Assembly: GCA_010119145.1 (NCBI GenBank)
Contig: JAACSU010000008.1
Span: 1 to 64,000 of the forward strand
Length of the DNA: 64,000 nucleotides
Direction of reading: 5' to 3'
From: Candidatus Gracilibacteria bacterium
Lineage (GTDB): Bacteria; Patescibacteriota; Gracilibacteria; BD1-5; UBA6164
Part shown: piece after piece, positions 1,281-41,526 of the stretch
Numbering within the stretch: position 1 is the stretch's first letter
Layout of the letters: every line of letters starts with the position of its first letter
Notes under the pieces: generated by a model
What the model was told of the DNA's origin: nothing
What the model saw: the letters and a program-made list of their open reading frames with translations, nothing else
Database searches by the model: none
Made by a program: the position numbers and the translations under genes

Positions 1281-2267
1281 ATGGATAAGAAAGAAGCACT
1301 CGCTAATGCGTTAGCGATGATTGAAAAACAATATTGAAAAGGATCTATTATGAAACTTGGAGATGATGATATAGGAAAAGGGATTCCTACTACTTCTTCA
1401 TGATCTCTGAGTCTCGACCTCGCACTTGGTGGAGGTTACGCAAAAGGTAGAATCGTAGAAATCTATGGACCAGAATCATCTGGTAAAACCACACTTACTC
1501 TCCACGCTATTGCAGAAGTACAAAAAGCCTGAGGAACAGCAGCCTTTATAGATGCTGAACATGCGCTCGATCCACGATATGCTGAAAGTGTCGGTGTACG
1601 TACGAAAGACCTCATTATTTCACAACCAGATTATGGTGAACAGGCTCTCGAGATATGTGAGAAACTTGTAAACTCTTGAGCTGTTGATCTCATAATCGTG
1701 GATTCTGTAGCAGCACTCACTCCAAAAGCCGAAATAGAATGAGATATGGGTGACTCTCATATGGGACTTCAAGCTCGACTCATGAGTCAAGCACTCAGAA
1801 AAATTACTGGGTCTATTAGTAAATCTGGATGTACGGTTATCTTCATTAATCAGATTCGTATGAAGATTGGAGTAATGTTTGGAAGTCCGGAAACTACGAC
1901 ATGAGGAAATGCCCTTAAGTTCTATGCATCTCAAAGACTAGATATCAGAAGAAAAGAAAAAATCGAATCTGGAGCTGGAATGGATAAAGAAATAAACGGA
2001 AATAAAACTCGAGTAAAAGTTATTAAAAATAAAATAGCTCCTCCTTTTAGAGAAGCTGAATTTGATGTAATGTACAATCAATGAATCTCTAAAGTTTGAG
2101 AAATCATAGATATTTGAGCTCAACTAGAAGTTATTAAAAAAGCTGGTGCATTTTATAGTTACGGTGATACTCGTCTTGGTCAAGGAAGAGAAAATGCAAA
2201 AACATTCTTGACTGAAAATCCAAAACTCGCAGCTGAAATAGAAGAAGTAATAAAAAACAGTATTTAA
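1281..2267 (+). CDS. recA: Recombinase RecA
   Basis: 328-residue RecA, the ATP-dependent strand-exchange protein of homologous recombination that also triggers LexA cleavage where LexA exists. The start [21 protein letters not shown] aligns with the family only if the TGA at codon 19 is Gly. The Walker A motif GPESSGKT lies near residues 63-70, and the loop [10 protein letters not shown] and the region TTGGNALKFY are present. Hand count gives nine UGA glycines. Length is slightly short of E. coli RecA because the acidic tail is trimmed. No Shine-Dalgarno and no LexA-like box are seen upstream. A strong hairpin terminator follows, so it is probably monocistronic. Confidence 0.98.
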
Positions 2268-3404: not shown

Positions 3405-5774
3405 GTGAAAGTATCCTACAAAGTCCTCAAAAAATATATTCCAGATATTAAGTCTCCCGAAGAAGTAGCCCAAGACCTTATTATGCATACTGCTGAGGTG
3501 GAAGAAATGCATTCTCAAAAAAAAGATTTTGAAAATATTGTGTATTGAAAAATTACAAGCGTAATTCCACATGATAATGCTGATTCTCTCAGAGTTTGTA
3601 TGGTAGACATTGGTGAAGAGTCTGATACTCAAATAGTGTGTGGTGGATCTAACCTACAAGTTGGACAATGAGTAGCGATTGCTAAAATTGGAGCAAGTGT
3701 CCTTTGGCATGGACAATGAGATCCAGTTATCATGAAAAAAACAGCCATTCGATGAGTTGAGAGTTCTGGGATGATTTGTGCAGCTGAAGAAATATGACTC
3801 AAAGATGAGTTTCCAGCAAAAACAGAAACTGAAATTATTGATCTCACACACCTTCAAGCAAAACCAGGAACTCCACTTGATGAAGTCCTTTGAAAAGATG
3901 ATATTATCTTGGAAATAGATAACAAGGCTATTAACCATAGACCTGATTTATTTTCACATATAGGTATAGCCCGAGAGGTTTCTGCTATTGCAGGCAAGAA
4001 ACTTGATTATGAACATGCTCAAAGAAATTTTTCAAATTTAAATGAGTTTTCGATTCAAAATGATATTCAAAATGAGGTAAAGAGATACATGGGAATCAAG
4101 GTTTCATGAGTTCAAAATATTCAAAGTCCAGACTATATAAAAGAAGTCCTTCAGTCTCAAGGTGTAGAATCAAAAGGTCTTCTGGTAGATATTACCAACT
4201 ATTCCCTGTATTTATATTGACAACCTACTCACTGTTTTGATGCTGACACCATTAAGTGAGATATGCATATCAGATTTGCGAGAGACTGAGAACAATTTGA
4301 AGCACTTAATGGAAAGAGTTATACACTCTCAAGCTCTGATATAGTTATCGCTGATGAGATAAATATACTCGCTCTTGGTTGAGTTATAGGTTGAAAAGCT
4401 TCCGCAGTATCTGATACAACAAGTAATATAATAATAGAATCAGCTTGGTTTGATCAAGCGATTTTAAGGCAAACTGGGAAAAGACTCGGACTACGAACAG
4501 ATGCGCTGAATGTATTTGAAAAAGATTTAATTGTAGATTTGAGAGATATAGGCCCATCTCTCATCATCCAAGAACTAGAAAAACATCTTCCAAATATGAA
4601 GCTCGAGGCTTTCAAAGATGTGTATCCAACGAAAGAGTCAACAGTAACTATTCCATACAATGGAGAATTTATATCAATGCTTTTAGGAAAAGAATATAGC
4701 AAAGACCAAATAGTCGAAATACTCAGTCGAGTATGAATAGAGCTTGAGTGAGAAATGCTTCTTCCTCCATCATGGAGAAAAGATCTCACAAATATAGCTG
4801 ATATAGCAGAGGAAGTAGCACGACTGGATGGATATGGAAAAATTGAAATGACTATTCCACGAATTAATATAGGAGCTGTAACGCAATCACCACTCTACAA
4901 GGCACGAAGAGACGTGCGAAATTATCTTGTTTCTGATTGATTTTTTGAGCTCTATACCTATTCATTTACAAATAAAACTGTCATTGAAAAAGCTCTGGGA
5001 GATATAGAAACTCATATTCCTCTTAAAAACTACCTTTCAGAAGAGCTTTCTCATATGCGAGCAATGCTGATTCCAAACTTACTCCAAGCACTGGAAGATA
5101 ATTCAAGAGAATTCAAAAATTTAAAATTATTCGAATGTGAAAAAGTATTTCATACATCGTGAACTGATAGTATTTCAGAAAATTATGAACTATGACTCAT
5201 AGAGCAGAGTCATACAGAAAATGCGTATTACTCTATACAAAATACACTCAATGATATATTTGCAAAACTCTGAGTTCTCTCTCACAGCTTAGAATCTACT
5301 AATGAGATTCCACACTTTGCACATGGCTGAAGAACAGCACAAGTGATAGTACGAGGAAAAACAGTTGGATATATCGGTGAAATACATCCAAAAGCTGCGA
5401 AAAATTTTGGAGCAACTTGAAGAATATGATTTATCACTCTTGATATGAGTGCACTAGAACCAGCATTTTATTGACTGGTATCAGCAAAAGAAATATCTAA
5501 TTTCCAACAAAATAATTTTGACTTAAATTTTGTAGTAGATACTCAAACACCTGGAAAAAAGATTCAAACAGCTATTTCAAAGACTGACGCACTTATTCAA
5601 AAAGTGGAACTTAAGGATATTTATGAATCACAAGAAAAGTTGCCAGGAAAAAGAAGTCTCACATTTAAAATTTATATACAATCAGATTTAGAAACTCTGA
5701 GCGATTCTATAAAAAATACACTTATAGAAAAAATTATAGACAAAGTATCAAAAGTAGGTGGAACTTTAAGATAA
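3405..5774 (+). CDS. pheT: Phenylalanine--tRNA ligase beta subunit
   Basis: 789 residues, the normal length for PheT, which with PheS forms the alpha2-beta2 enzyme that charges tRNA-Phe; beta carries the editing site. In order: N-terminal B1 region, OB-fold tRNA-binding domain (EMHS...[12 protein letters not shown]), B3/B4 editing domain ([29 protein letters not shown]), B5 ([14 protein letters not shown]), the catalytic-like core, and a C-terminal anticodon-binding fold ending in GTLR. More than 20 glycines are UGA. The GTG start at 3405 is in frame with [15 protein letters not shown]; the ATG at 3400 is out of frame. pheS is not next to it in this window. Confidence 0.96.
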
Positions 5775-10985: not shown

Positions 10986-12215
10986 TTATTGAGCCACAGG
11001 GACTTTAGCAATTGGATTCCAGTAATTTCCAAGAGCTATATTTATGATGTATGACGCAGGAACTGTCAGCAAAAATCCAATCTTCATCTGGCCAGCTAAA
11101 TCATCCGGGATGAGTCCCTTTGATTGTGCGACAGAAACAAAAATTATTGCAACAGTCCCGTTACAGGCACCAGCAACAGACATGGAAATAAGAGACTTTG
11201 TGGTGAAATTTTTTACTCCGTAATCACCATCTAAATCTGCCTTACTCCGGCCATAGAATCCACCAAGAAAGATTCCGAAGAACTTCCCCAAGAATCCTCC
11301 TAATAGGGCTAGTAAGGTGAAGATTCCCCAAGCCTGTGGAGAAAGTATATCAACCGCGCCTGCGACCATAGCGAATGGAAGAAGTAGCCAGAGTGCAATT
11401 GCCTCTGTTTGGCGAGCAACACAATGCTTAACATCAGTGGGAGCAAAAATCAAAGGAAGACATCCACCCAAAATTGGTTCAATACCAACAAAACCTAGAT
11501 AGGCTGTATTAAGAATTGCCATCACCCACCAAAACACTGGCGAGATGATGGTGTAGTCGATAATTTCTTCGCTTATGAGTTCTTTTGTTTCACGGTTAAA
11601 AAGTTTTTTGCTGATGTGTCCTTCCTTTCCAACGAACCAGCAAATCAAAAGAATCACAGCTTCTCCTAAGAGAGCATAGAACTGTGTCATATTTTCAGCA
11701 AAGAGACCAGTCATCGCAACAACCCCAATGAGGTCATCACCAACTGCAAGAATCATGAGTGCCATTGCCATAACAGCTACAACAGATTTTTCAACACTTC
11801 GAGCTGAACCAAGTGCCATCGGAACATCCGTTGCCATAGCTCCAGCCGAAGCATACAGTGCAATCGCAAAGGTCGCAGTACCACCTATGAAGAAGACTAG
11901 TGAGGTAGTTAACAACATTGGAAGAATGACACCTCCCAAGGTTGCAAATATCACCAATGGTCCAGCATCAATGACATCTTTGATTTCGATTTCAGCACCG
12001 AGACGCAAAAAGAAAAACCAAAGTCCCACTAACATAAACACATAGTGAATTGAACTGATATGCAAAACTTCTGCATATAACTCACCAACATGACCTAAGT
12101 ATCCAGCATGACCCAGTGAATAAACACCCAGAGCAAGCAGGAAAAAAGGAATGATTACTGGAAATTTGTTATCCCAAGCAATGATTCCACTTTTTGTATT
12201 TGTATTTTTAGACAT
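10986..12215 (-). CDS. nhaA: Na+/H+ antiporter NhaA
   Basis: 409 residues, an integral membrane protein with about 12 hydrophobic segments. The NhaA family motifs are present: ATDVPMALG (Asp130) and LAVGDDLIG (Asp160-Asp161, the paired aspartates that bind Na+ and H+). It exchanges internal Na+ for external protons, giving salt and alkali tolerance. Two features set it apart. All 42 glycines (hand count) are GGN, none UGA. It also has a clear Shine-Dalgarno site (tggagatatga before ATG), which native genes here lack. Together with a near-perfect TTGACA promoter and a GC-rich terminator, this points to recent transfer from a standard-code bacterium. Confidence 0.93.
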   Translation of the reverse strand: MSKNTNTKSGIIAWDNKFPVIIPFFLLALGVYSLGHAGYLGHVGELYAEVLHISSIHYVFMLVGLWFFFLRLGAEIEIKDVIDAGPLVIFATLGGVILPMLLTTSLVFFIGGTATFAIALYASAGAMATDVPMALGSARSVEKSVVAVMAMALMILAVGDDLIGVVAMTGLFAENMTQFYALLGEAVILLICWFVGKEGHISKKLFNRETKELISEEIIDYTIISPVFWWVMAILNTAYLGFVGIEPILGGCLPLIFAPTDVKHCVARQTEAIALWLLLPFAMVAGAVDILSPQAWGIFTLLALLGGFLGKFFGIFLGGFYGRSKADLDGDYGVKNFTTKSLISMSVAGACNGTVAIIFVSVAQSKGLIPDDLAGQMKIGFLLTVPASYIINIALGNYWNPIAKVPVAQ

Positions 12216-14754: not shown

Positions 14755-15453
14755 ATGAATTATAAAGCTGATACACTAGAATCGAGTCTCCAAAATACTG
14801 CCAACTCGAGTCATCCATATATAGATTACCTCTGGCAAAACATAACTCTTGAGTTTATGCTCAAGTTTTTTGTAGTGTACTTTTTTGCTATTTGGATAGC
14901 GCTCATTATTTGGGTAGCCAGAGATATCTCACTTCGTACAGAAAGCAAAATTGTTCAAATACTTGGTATAATGATTATAATTTTTCTTACTCCTCTGTGA
15001 ATATTTTTGTATCTCTTAGCAAGACCTAGAAAGACGTTATCGCAAGAGTCGTCACTTGAAGTTGAAAGTAATCTCGATATTTTGAATGAAATTATTGATG
15101 AAAGACTACAAAAATCTCAGATTCTGCATTGTCCAAATTGCGATATACAGATTGAAGCAGAGTTTACACAGTGTCCAAATTGTCATACCGAGCTAAAACA
15201 TGATTGTTCTCATTGTGAAAGAGAGATACGAAACACGTGGGATGTATGTCCTTATTGCCAGAAGAAACAAGTAAAAAAGGCAGCAATCTTCCAAAAATTA
15301 GGAACAGAAATTCCTCAAAAAGTAGAAATTGAAAAGCTCAGTACAACTCAAAATAAATCGGATGAATGAGTCACTGAAAAAATAGTTTCAAACAATTCTA
15401 TTCCACCAGTATCACAGAAAAAATGAAAGAAATATAAAAAGAATAAAAAATAA
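14755..15453 (+). CDS. Membrane protein with double zinc ribbon
   Basis: 232 residues. Two membrane segments lie at about residues 35-57 (FFVVYFFAIWIALIIWVA) and 67-88, separated by a short loop. A cytosolic part holds two zinc ribbons with six CxxC knuckles in total: HCPNC, QCPNC, DCSHC, VCPYC among them. The C-terminal tail is strongly basic (KKGKKYKKNKK). This layout is common in CPR genomes. The role is unknown; a membrane-tethered nucleic-acid or ribosome-binding adaptor is possible. It begins one base after the trmD stop, so it is in the same transcript. Confidence 0.8.
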
Positions 15454-15489
15454 AAAAAGAGACTGAATGAATCAGTCTCTTTTTTATAT
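15453..15489. terminator. Bidirectional terminator between the zinc-ribbon gene and leuS
   Basis: aaaagagactga / tcagtctctttttt, with A run before and T run after, so it can stop transcription from both sides. Confidence 0.92.
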
Positions 15490-15502
15490 AGTGTCTATAA
15501 TA

Positions 15503-18748
<3,246 letters not shown>

Positions 18749-39084: not shown

Positions 39085-39108
39085 AATCCCTGAACGGGAT
39101 TTTTTTAT
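39083..39108. terminator. Bidirectional terminator of the kinase gene and the 39105 gene
   Basis: aaatccc-tgaa-cgggattt with A and T runs; the right side overlaps the stop codon of the minus-strand gene. Confidence 0.85.
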
Positions 39109-40019
39109 TTCACCAATCTTATTGATTTTCTTCTTTTTAAAGCATTTGAACTCTCTAAGTGTACTCATTCTCAATCTCATACTACTGTTCATCAGACTAA
39201 TGAAAGGCTTGTTTTTCTCACGTCTTCAGCTTTTACATTTTCAAATAAAAGCAGAGATTCTCGGTACTGATGTAACACCCATGACTTAAAACGAAATTCT
39301 TCCTCTAACGTTCCTAAAAACTCTGTTCTTGTACTCTCTTCAAATTCGGATCTCAATTCTCTCAGTCTCAATGCTTCTTCATCTGTAAATTCGCTTTGAT
39401 GTGCCAGCAAGACGTCAGTAAAATTCTCAGATAATTCCCATAGAATTTCAATTCTCTCGTTTATATTGTATTCTATGAGATCTATCACATTTCCATCTCA
39501 ATCTACATAATGAACTCCACGTTCTCTAGAATACACCATTTGATATCCAAACTCTTCACCTAAATAGTAAATAACTTCACCTGTACTATTCAGCATATTG
39601 TTTCTATGAGCAGAGTTAATTAATCAACTCAGGAATGTTCCCTGTGTATCAGGAATAGTATGATTTGCAAACTCTAAATCTATGATTGTTTCTCTGAGTC
39701 ATAAAATTTTCCAAACACTTTGAGTTATTCCCTGTTCAATATAAAACTTCGCTTGTTCAAAGGCTAAGAGAATCACAGCAATATTAACATTCTTATTCTC
39801 TGTAGATTCAATAAATGAAAAATTATTTTCCTTACAAAAATTAAGAAATTTTTTATATATATTAGAATCTCAAAAGATAACTTCAAAAATATTTTCAAGC
39901 GTACTATCCACAGTATCAATTCACAAGGTTGAATAAAAATCAATGACAAATGCCCTAAAATTAGGATTTGTAAATCATTTATGCGTTAGACTCGTATCAA
40001 CACTCAATATATTTGGCAT
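39105..40019 (-). CDS. Hypothetical protein, 304 aa
   Basis: A soluble, mostly helical, acidic protein (MPNILSVDTSLTHKG...), ending in a basic tail (KRRKSIRLVK). No signal peptide or membrane helix. It uses many UGA glycines; five fall in a run near the C-terminus (LVGGTVVGDGEGV). No family was recognised. It has no operon partner and is divergent from the standard-code islet. Confidence 0.65.
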
Positions 40020-40156
40020 TTTGACTCTTATAATAATTATAGTTTTAATACTATATATTTTTGAGACAGAATGTCAAAATAGTTCAAAAGTAATTTGACT
40101 AAAATAGTATTTTATTAATAATAATTAAGCAAAAATAAAAATACAGGAGAAGAATC

Positions 40157-40525
40157 ATGCTCGTTAGAATTAACGCTAGTGGTATCACTATCATATCGAC
40201 CAATGATCCAGACTATGCTGAATCACAAGTACCTATTGAGATTCAGTCTCGCGCTTTGAAAGTCGATCCTGATACCTTACTGATTATAGAGATTATCTTT
40301 GACTACTCTAGGCTCGAAGACCTAGAAATCGGACCGAAAGATAGAAAAAAGAAAGTGAAACGTCTCGTATTGAAAGGACAAAAAAGAATAAATTTCAATG
40401 GGAGATTTGGTGATTTTCTCAAAGATGTAAATTTGATTCAATCTCAAATCGATCAATTTACTTCTGAAGGTCTCATCATTCGAAAAAAAGACAAAACCAA
40501 AGTAAGTGAAGAAATGCAAGCGTAA
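40157..40525 (+). CDS. Hypothetical protein, foreign islet gene 1
   Basis: 122 residues, basic in the second half (KDRKKKVKRLVLKGQKR). A strong Shine-Dalgarno (acaggagaagaatc before ATG) stands out; native genes in the window lack one. All six or so glycines are GGN and no in-frame TGA occurs. No domain was recognised. With the next gene it forms a two-gene transcript that ends in a GC-rich terminator. A TTGACT-N17-ATAATA promoter lies near 40096-40124. Confidence 0.75.
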   Translation: MLVRINASGITIISTNDPDYAESQVPIEIQSRALKVDPDTLLIIEIIFDYSRLEDLEIGPKDRKKKVKRLVLKGQKRINFNGRFGDFLKDVNLIQSQIDQFTSEGLIIRKKDKTKVSEEMQA

Positions 40526-40559
40526 CAAAAACACAAACTAATAGGCAGGAGAATATAAA

Positions 40560-40868
40560 ATGCCAATGAAGACTTATTTTTTCCAACTCAATTATTACAA
40601 AGAGGGTTGTAAAGACCCTCGAGTGATAATTGTCTGCGCAGCCTTTTTAACTCTGAAAAATGCCTGCAAATGGGCAAAAGTGATGGAAGAACAGGCTATG
40701 AATCTTCAAAATTCTGAGTACCCAAAACTCAGAACCAGGCCAACTTTCCAAAAAAAGAAAGACGCTTGGCCACAGCCACGGAGTCTTCCTGTCAGCAGGA
40801 TTAGGAATCCTGGACAAGCAGGAATCGAAGATATTCTCGGTAGACGTGCGTTTCAGCGCGCTGCCTGA
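40560..40868 (+). CDS. Hypothetical protein, foreign islet gene 2 (probable TGA stop)
   Basis: 102 residues, preceded by ggcaggagaatataaa, again a clear Shine-Dalgarno. The frame meets TGA at 40866-40868. Under code 25 this would be Gly, and translation would run 22 more codons through a strong terminator hairpin to a TAA at 40934. The terminator placed just 22 nt after the TGA shows that TGA was the stop in the donor. Other glycines are GGN, and CGG Arg is used. The 3' half is GC-richer than its surroundings. No family was recognised. Confidence 0.75.
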   Translation: MPMKTYFFQLNYYKEGCKDPRVIIVCAAFLTLKNACKWAKVMEEQAMNLQNSEYPKLRTRPTFQKKKDAWPQPRSLPVSRIRNPGQAGIEDILGRRAFQRAA

Positions 40869-40889
40869 GTGGTATTTTCGAACACACGC

Positions 40890-40926
40890 AATTCCCTTGG
40901 GCCTTTGGGCCCCTGGGATTTTTTTA
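40890..40926 (+). terminator. GC-rich terminator of the foreign islet
   Basis: tccc-tt-gggcc / ggccc-ct-ggga stem followed by T7; much GC-richer than native terminators. Confidence 0.9.
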
Positions 40927-40968
40927 AGAAATAAAAGAATATAATCAATACTTGAGTTAAAAAATACT

Positions 40969-41526
40969 ATGTGATTAAATAATTATCCAGCAGAGTTTTA
41001 CGAAGCTACCAGAATTCAAGAAGCCTATCTCATTTTGCATCCTCAAATACTTGAGAGATACGATATTACAAGAGAAGAGTTTTATGACGCATTTCCCAGA
41101 GCATCAAACTTTAGTCAGCTCAAATATCCTATCGTAGATGAGTTTTGAATAGATTATTGAGATAGTGAATGATACTATATGTCGCAACGTACAGATAATC
41201 TTAAATTAAAAAGAGAAATCTCTGAAGCCTCAAAAGTAAAAGGACAATCAAAAAAACAGGCCTATAAATATCATCAGCTTCTCAATCAAAATGAGCAAGA
41301 CAGAATAACCTTCATGAGAAATGCTATCACGCAAAAATACAACGGAAGCAAATGGAGAAATACGCAACTGCTTGAGACCGGAGACAGAGAAATTATCGAA
41401 TTCACCTACTGGTGAGATGAGTTTTTCTGAATATCAAACACGACTCGTACCGGTAGGAATATTCTCGGGAAGCTTCTCATGGAATACAGAGACGATTTAC
41501 TCGCACGATTGAATGAGTATGAATAA
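40969..41526 (+). CDS. NADAR domain protein (RibX/YbiA family)
   Basis: 185 residues. The C-terminal NADAR pattern is clear: FMRNAITQKYNGSKWRNTQLLETGDREIIEFTYWGDEFFGIS and GRNILGKLLMEYRDDL. The family cleaves N-glycosidic bonds in riboflavin intermediates (YbiA) or removes ADP-ribose from guanine in NAD-linked defence. The N-terminal part (residues 1-90) carries a helical segment not recognised. The second codon is UGA, and others follow, so the gene is native. It is not next to other riboflavin genes. Confidence 0.82.

What the first reader, a model, noticed from the sequence alone, without database searches (positions are those of the whole stretch)
40157..40934. Two-gene islet that still seems to use the standard code, ending at TGA
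Both genes have strong Shine-Dalgarno sites (aggag), all glycines GGN, and the second meets TGA at 40866-40868, with a GC-rich terminator starting 22 nt later. Under the host's code 25 that TGA is Gly, and the protein gains a 22-residue tail encoded by the terminator itself. So the islet was built for a standard-code cell and has been acquired recently. In this host it either makes a tailed protein or is silent. It is a natural experiment in how a code barrier affects gene transfer.
Basis: partly seen in the sequence, partly recalled or inferred. Interest (0 to 1): 0.8.

Follow-up and report, generated by a model that had tools for sequence, protein, structure and literature searches.

The report
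Standard-code gene pair in recoded bacterium
Two small genes in a bacterium that reads the stop codon TGA as glycine still look written for the ordinary genetic code, and a related species carries a relative of the second gene that ends in TGA at the same place, so these genes appear to have evolved in ordinary-code cells and to have landed repeatedly at one chromosomal spot.

Summary
In detail: 40157-40868 holds two ORFs (122 and 102 aa) with AGGAGA sites, 10/10 GGN glycines, TGA at 40866, and a hairpin terminator starting 22 nt on. The host is truly code 25 (RF1 only, tRNA-Gly(UCA), TGA = 46% of Gly codons), and its genes almost never have SD sites (AGGAG before 1 of 596). The new result: two sister species carry islets at the same locus (divergent from gene X, before nrdA) with the same promoter core and nearly the same terminator, but ORFs without DNA similarity. 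Across the six ORFs, 35/35 glycines are GGN. In one sister, gene 2 also ends at TGA, exactly nine codons after the shared 'DIL' motif, and the terminator lies in a different frame in each species. So TGA was the real stop, the tail is not a conserved protein part, and 'recent one-off acquisition' is too simple. Best reading: a genus-old expression site/hotspot repeatedly loaded with standard-code cassettes. In this host gene 2 should read through TGA, and the next stop lies beyond the U-tract. Donor and function are unknown; a weak fold lead points to small anti-CRISPR/antitoxin proteins.

The parts
39105..40019 (-). Gene X, 304 aa, 11 TGA=Gly codons; divergent resident neighbour, also beside the islet in G156 (50% aa identity) and, diverged or broken, in G051
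40050..40077 (-). Promoter-like site for gene X (TTGACA-16-TATAGT)
   Evidence: consensus match only
40095..40122 (+). Islet promoter (TTGACT-16-AATAAT); core ATTAATAATAAT identical in three species
40145..40150 (+). Shine-Dalgarno site of gene 1 (AGGAGA)
40157..40525 (+). Gene 1, 122 aa orphan, 6 GGN / 0 TGA, stop TAA
   Evidence: no homologue found
40548..40553 (+). Shine-Dalgarno site of gene 2 (AGGAGA)
40560..40868 (+). Gene 2 read by the standard code, 102 aa, 4 GGN / 0 TGA, GC 44%; homologous to G051 gene 1 and G156 genes 1 and 2
40866..40868 (+). TGA: stop by the standard code, Gly by the host's code; also present at the homologous position in G156
40869..40934 (+). Code-25 read-through tail, 21 codons after the TGA, ending at TAA 40932-40934; not conserved in homologues
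40886..40926 (+). Intrinsic terminator, 41 bp, 95% identical to G156 and 86% (43 bp) to G051, with no DNA similarity in the islet ORFs upstream
40969..41526 (+). NADAR-domain gene with 6 TGA=Gly codons, in the place where G156 and G051 have a 23S rRNA fragment; hotspot content, not part of the islet

Best explanation
The islet is a small standard-code transcription unit at a variable chromosomal site (between gene X and nrdA) of a code-25 gracilibacterium. Shown: the promoter core and terminator are shared by three species, while the ORFs between them are not alignable as DNA, use no TGA for glycine, and in two species end gene 2 at TGA in the same place. Inferred: the ORFs diverged from each other while evolving in cells where TGA is a stop (standard-code bacteria or their phages or plasmids), and were loaded into this site separately in each lineage, or exchanged as cassettes. 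In the present host gene 1 (TAA) can be made normally. Gene 2's TGA is read as Gly by tRNA-Gly(UCA), since there is no RF2, so translation runs into the terminator hairpin. Because the next in-frame stop lies beyond the U-tract, most transcripts should have no stop at all, giving a tailed or rescued and degraded product. Gene 2 is therefore probably poorly made or made with a tail here, rather than fully silent.
For: Host code: RF1 (prfA) only, no RF2 in any genus member; tRNA-UCA on C9 with Gly identity elements G1:C72, C2:G71, G3:C70, U73 (rule from PMC8629427). Homologous islets at the same locus in G051 = JAHDCR010000010 and G156 = JAGXIV010000032. G156 gene 2 ends ..DILSLNPYQRVQ-TGA against ..DILGRRAFQRAA-TGA here, the same distance. 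Stop-to-terminator spacing is 21, 17 and 13 nt, i.e. all three frames, so the 95%-identical terminator cannot be a conserved protein tail. DNA identity with G156: nrdA 89%, gene X to promoter 70%, ORFs none, terminator 95%. 35/35 GGN over six ORFs. Codon usage apart from Gly is unlike that of TGA-poor, probably highly expressed host genes (AGG, CCC, ACC, AGC enriched). GC is 0.36-0.44, against about 0.34 for the window. Other standard-code-looking genes occur in the genome.
Against: No donor or standard-code homologue was found in phages, plasmids, viral contigs or the genomes searched. Only three islets and four convincingly related proteins are known, and G051 gene 2 ends in TAG and is not convincingly a family member (z <= 2.3). 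The SD sites match the host order's own anti-SD better than the canonical one. Promoter and terminator are host-resident, which suggests the unit works in this host. The weaker probability for GGN-only (0.04) applies if the genes are expressed like ribosomal proteins. There are no expression data.
Confidence: 0.6

Rival explanations
1. TGA is an ordinary glycine here, the 22-residue tail is a real part of gene 2, and the lack of other TGA codons reflects strong expression (ribosomal-type genes also avoid TGA) plus small numbers.
For: TGA-poor genes in the host are mostly highly expressed; the unit has a good promoter and SD; about 4% probability of 0/35 if TGA use were like ribosomal genes.
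Against: Tails are unrelated and lie in different frames of a conserved terminator; the homologous C-termini of G051 gene 1 and G156 gene 1 stop at TAA about where this TGA lies; codon usage is not that of TGA-poor host genes; the code-25 stop lies beyond the U-tract.
Confidence: 0.12
2. Single recent transfer from a standard-code donor; the sister islets are separate events of no relevance.
For: ORFs lack DNA similarity to the sister ORFs and have not taken up TGA codons.
Against: Same position, same promoter core, 95%/86% identical terminator and homologous proteins in the other two species.
Confidence: 0.1
3. A dual-code unit kept by selection: it belongs to an element (phage, plasmid or transferable cassette) that must work in both the code-25 cell and its standard-code partner, so TGA is avoided inside ORFs in the long term.
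For: Code-11-compatible phages avoiding in-frame TGA are reported for Gracilibacteria (PMC10746230); the SD fits the host's anti-SD; transcription signals are conserved.
Against: A dual-code gene should not end in TGA without a nearby backup stop (in that paper backups lie close by); no phage or plasmid homologue; no mobile-element gene recognised beside it.
Confidence: 0.12
4. Assembly chimera or contamination.
For: The bin does contain short standard-code contigs.
Against: The islet lies inside a 229-kb code-25 contig, and two independent MAGs have the same arrangement.
Confidence: 0.01

Closest known systems
Code-11-compatible phages predicted to infect Gracilibacteria/Absconditabacteria (PMC10746230)
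   Same: Genes in or against code-25 hosts that avoid in-frame TGA and stay readable in both codes
   Different: Chromosomal two-gene unit without recognised phage genes; gene 2 ends in TGA with no backup stop before the terminator
Morons (independent promoter-gene-terminator units in prophages; own knowledge)
   Same: Own promoter, own terminator, deviating composition, inserted between unrelated genes, content differs between relatives
   Different: Not inside a recognisable prophage; promoter and terminator appear resident while the ORFs change
UAG-ending genes transferred into recoded E. coli lacking RF1 (PMC6207430)
   Same: A transferred gene keeps a stop codon that the recipient cannot use as a stop; tmRNA rescue and degradation expected
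   Different: Natural case; here the codon is reassigned to Gly rather than unassigned, so read-through rather than stalling at the codon itself; no tmRNA found in the 839 kb sampled
AcrIC9 anti-CRISPR and ATfaRel2 antitoxin folds (PDB 8hjj, 8pu2)
   Same: Small beta-beta-alpha-beta-like arrangement over about 70 residues (VIA Z 5.0 and 4.9, rmsd 3.4 and 3.0 A)
   Different: No sequence similarity; Z in the range where unrelated folds also score; function not implied

Membership tests
Code-25 host (UGA = Gly) | No RF2; RF1 present | tested here: met
   (0 of 8 genus genomes with RF2 over cut-off; one release factor of this type in 6, the three scanned are RF1)
Code-25 host (UGA = Gly) | tRNA-Gly(UCA) | tested here: met
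   C9 tRNA with anticodon TCA and Gly identity elements
Code-25 host (UGA = Gly) | In-frame TGA at Gly positions | tested here: met
   45.9% of Gly codons; 9 in the RF1 gene itself
Standard-code gene | Glycine only as GGN, TGA used as stop | tested here: met
   35/35 GGN; TGA ends gene 2 in two of three islets
Standard-code gene | Homologue in a standard-code genome | tested here: inconclusive
   None in 353 class genomes, phages, plasmids or viral contigs; the family evolves fast, so misses are likely
Moron | Own promoter and terminator, foreign composition | tested here: met
Moron | Lies inside a prophage | tested here: not met
   Neighbours examined are gene X, AA-kinase-like, NADAR and ribonucleotide reductase genes
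Integron gene cassette | attC sites and integron integrase | not tested
   The conserved 41-bp hairpin is read as a terminator; no integrase search was made
Toxin-antitoxin operon | Two small co-transcribed genes | tested here: met
   Gene pair between one promoter and one terminator; co-transcription itself not measured
Toxin-antitoxin operon | Known toxin or antitoxin domain | tested here: inconclusive
   No Pfam/NCBIfam/PHROGs match; weak fold likeness to ATfaRel2
Anti-CRISPR AcrIC9-like | Shared fold and inhibition of Cascade | tested here: inconclusive
   VIA Z 5.0 only; inhibition not testable here

The most novel reading that the evidence does not exclude
TGA is kept as the stop of gene 2 across species because the unit is code-gated: its second product is made cleanly only in a standard-code cell (a bacterial host or prey, or a shared phage/plasmid pool), while in the code-25 cell it is tailed or destroyed through a nonstop transcript. 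A recoded bacterium would then be carrying, at a fixed site, genes whose selection happens in its neighbours.
Probability: 0.07. Interest if true: 0.9.

Novelty: new variant of a known kind. Interest (0 to 1): 0.58.

Why it matters
Whether a changed genetic code really blocks gene flow is an open question tested so far mainly in engineered E. coli. Here one locus in three related recoded species shows natural imports, with ORFs that have not taken up the new codon meaning, stop codons the recipient cannot read, and a non-conserved forced tail. It gives a concrete set of genes with which to measure how standard-code genes fare after crossing the code barrier, and it suggests a general screen (SD-bearing, TGA-free, TGA-ended genes) for such imports in code-25 genomes.

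Tried and rejected
Weak search hits G025 (leuS), G098, G065, G082 and G243 were checked and are chance. Pfam, PHROGs, NCBIfam and PDB sequence searches gave nothing credible (Tospovirus nucleocapsid and phiKZ RNA polymerase at E >0.1 rejected). Foldseek against PDB and viral models gave no match at E <= 0.001. The gene 1 model was too poor to use (pLDDT 40). The terminator pattern was sought in viral contigs (none) and 84,980 species (only the two sister genomes). Strong expression as the cause of GGN-only was considered and disfavoured by codon usage (the TGA-poor reference set was chosen by TGA content, but Gly was left out of the score). The idea that host genes use SD was tested with the host's own anti-SD and rejected. 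One script failed because alignment rows named 'window' overwrote the window; it was repeated.

Full report
What is there. The sequence is as described. ORF1 40157-40525 encodes 122 aa and ends in TAA. ORF2 40560-40868 encodes 102 aa and ends in TGA. Each has AGGAGA upstream, all ten glycines are GGN, and a hairpin with seven T follows the TGA after 21 nt (-18.4 kcal/mol, z -3.0). A sigma-70-like promoter TTGACT-16-AATAAT lies at 40095-40122, back to back with one for the divergent gene X.

The host code. The genome has one release factor of this type, RF1 by NCBIfam (476 bits against a cut-off of 400), and no RF2; no other genus member has an RF2 over the cut-off either. The RF1 gene itself has nine in-frame TGA. 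A tRNA with anticodon UCA and glycine identity elements lies on contig C9 (identity rule from PMC8629427). In 839 kb of code-25 contigs, 45.9% of Gly codons in genes >=150 aa are TGA. So TGA 40866 is Gly for this cell.

How unusual the islet is. Host genes essentially do not use Shine-Dalgarno sites: GGAG lies upstream of 3 of 596 genes and AGGAG of 1, fewer than before internal methionine codons (172 of 4060 have GGAG). The 16S tail of this order is ..GGACTATCTCCTTA rather than ..GGATCACCTCCTTA, so the islet sites AGGAGA pair over 6 nt with the host and 5 nt with a canonical ribosome. Avoiding TGA is not unique, because ribosomal and similar genes also do it. But the islet's codon choice apart from glycine is not that of TGA-poor host genes.

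Relatives. A profile and protein search of the class (353 genomes) found real homologues of gene 2 only in two other species of the same genus, G051 (JAHDCR010000010) and G156 (JAGXIV010000032). Both are at the same locus: gene X on one side in the divergent direction, nrdA on the other. G156 has two genes, TAA then TGA. G051 has two genes, TAA then TAG. Against G156, nrdA is 89% identical, gene X up to the promoter 70%, the ORFs have no DNA similarity, and the terminator is 95% identical over 41 bp. The promoter core ATTAATAATAAT is the same in all three. Convincing family members are window gene 2, G051 gene 1 and G156 genes 1 and 2 (pairwise z 4.1 to 15, except G156 gene 1 against gene 2, 0.5). 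G051 gene 2 (z <= 2.3) and window gene 1 are not shown to be related.

The TGA. Window gene 2 and G156 gene 2 align without a gap over the last stretch, DILGRRAFQRAA-TGA and DILSLNPYQRVQ-TGA. G051 gene 1 and G156 gene 1 end with TAA at about the same place. Downstream, the stop-to-terminator distance is 21, 17 and 13 nt, so the conserved terminator would be read in three different frames. The tail is therefore a by-product of reading the terminator, not a conserved protein part. Six ORFs hold 35 glycine codons and no TGA (P 4.6e-10 at the host share; 0.04 at a ribosomal-gene share, which I counted by eye). ORFs that had diverged to under 30% identity inside a code-25 cell would be expected to have taken up TGA, as gene X has (11 of 19). 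This is why I infer that the ORFs evolved under the standard code and came to this site in each lineage, while promoter and terminator stayed. It is an inference; no donor was found.

What happens now. Gene 1 ends in TAA and can be made. For gene 2, TGA is read as Gly and the frame goes on through the hairpin to TAA 40932, which lies 7 nt beyond the U-tract; the same holds in G156. Normal termination of transcription would leave mRNA without a stop. In recoded E. coli such products are rescued and degraded through tmRNA (PMC6207430). No tmRNA was found in the sampled 839 kb, so the fate here is open.

Hotspot. At the same interval G014 has another small, SD-bearing, TGA-free gene in the opposite orientation with its own hairpin (L018 2440-2640). 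G194 appears to have a TGA-rich gene there. G156 and G051 have a fragment of 23S rRNA, and the window has a NADAR gene. Elsewhere in the genome other TGA-free, SD-bearing genes occur, one with GC 55%. So import of standard-code genes looks recurrent in this lineage.

Function. Unknown by sequence. The model of gene 2 (pLDDT 81, five sequences) is a small strand-strand-helix-strand protein. The highest structural matches are AcrIC9 and ATfaRel2 at Z about 5, a range where unrelated folds also score. A phage-related small protein (anti-CRISPR or antitoxin type) is my guess, at perhaps 25%.

Comparison with the known. Code-11-compatible phages of Gracilibacteria are reported to avoid in-frame TGA, with backup stops close behind TGA stops (PMC10746230). 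The islet shares the first trait but not the second. It works like a moron-type unit but is not inside a recognised prophage, so it is not filed as one.

Noticed in passing
window 10986-12215 (-): 409-aa Na+/H+ antiporter-like gene (PF06965) with 42 GGN and no TGA, GGAGATATG before the start, GC 42% and a GC-rich terminator: another standard-code-looking gene in the same window.
   Followed up: partly
L132 9622-10179 (G000:C7 about 189622-190179) and 15254-15556: A 185-aa secreted protein with GC 55%, 21 GGN / 0 TGA, SD and GC-rich terminator, and a 100-aa SD gene nearby: likely recent imports from standard-code bacteria.
   Followed up: partly
L067 7139-7468 (G000:C8:191139-191468): 109-aa secreted orphan, SD AAAGGA, 7 GGN / 0 TGA, own terminator.
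   Followed up: partly
L081 about 3807-3852 and L082 about 2000-2088 (-): A fragment of the 5' part of 23S rRNA (74-81% identical to the host 23S) lies just downstream of the islet terminator in both sister species but not in the window.
   Followed up: partly
L018 2440-2640 (-): In G014 the same hotspot holds a different 66-aa, SD-bearing, TGA-free gene with its own hairpin terminator.
   Followed up: partly
16S 3' ends, L122-L124, L176-L181: The family and order have anti-SD ..TATCTCCTTA instead of CACCTCCTTA, and the host genes almost lack SD sites; most other class members sampled keep CACCTCC.
   Followed up: partly
G000 contigs C1-C6, C11-C19: Short contigs of the bin have almost no in-frame TGA: probably contamination by standard-code organisms.
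   Followed up: partly
window 40969-41526: NADAR-domain (PF08719) gene with 6 TGA=Gly codons between islet and nrdA.
   Followed up: no
L004 1900-2739: Gene X in G051 is split over two reading frames and may be a pseudogene.
   Followed up: no
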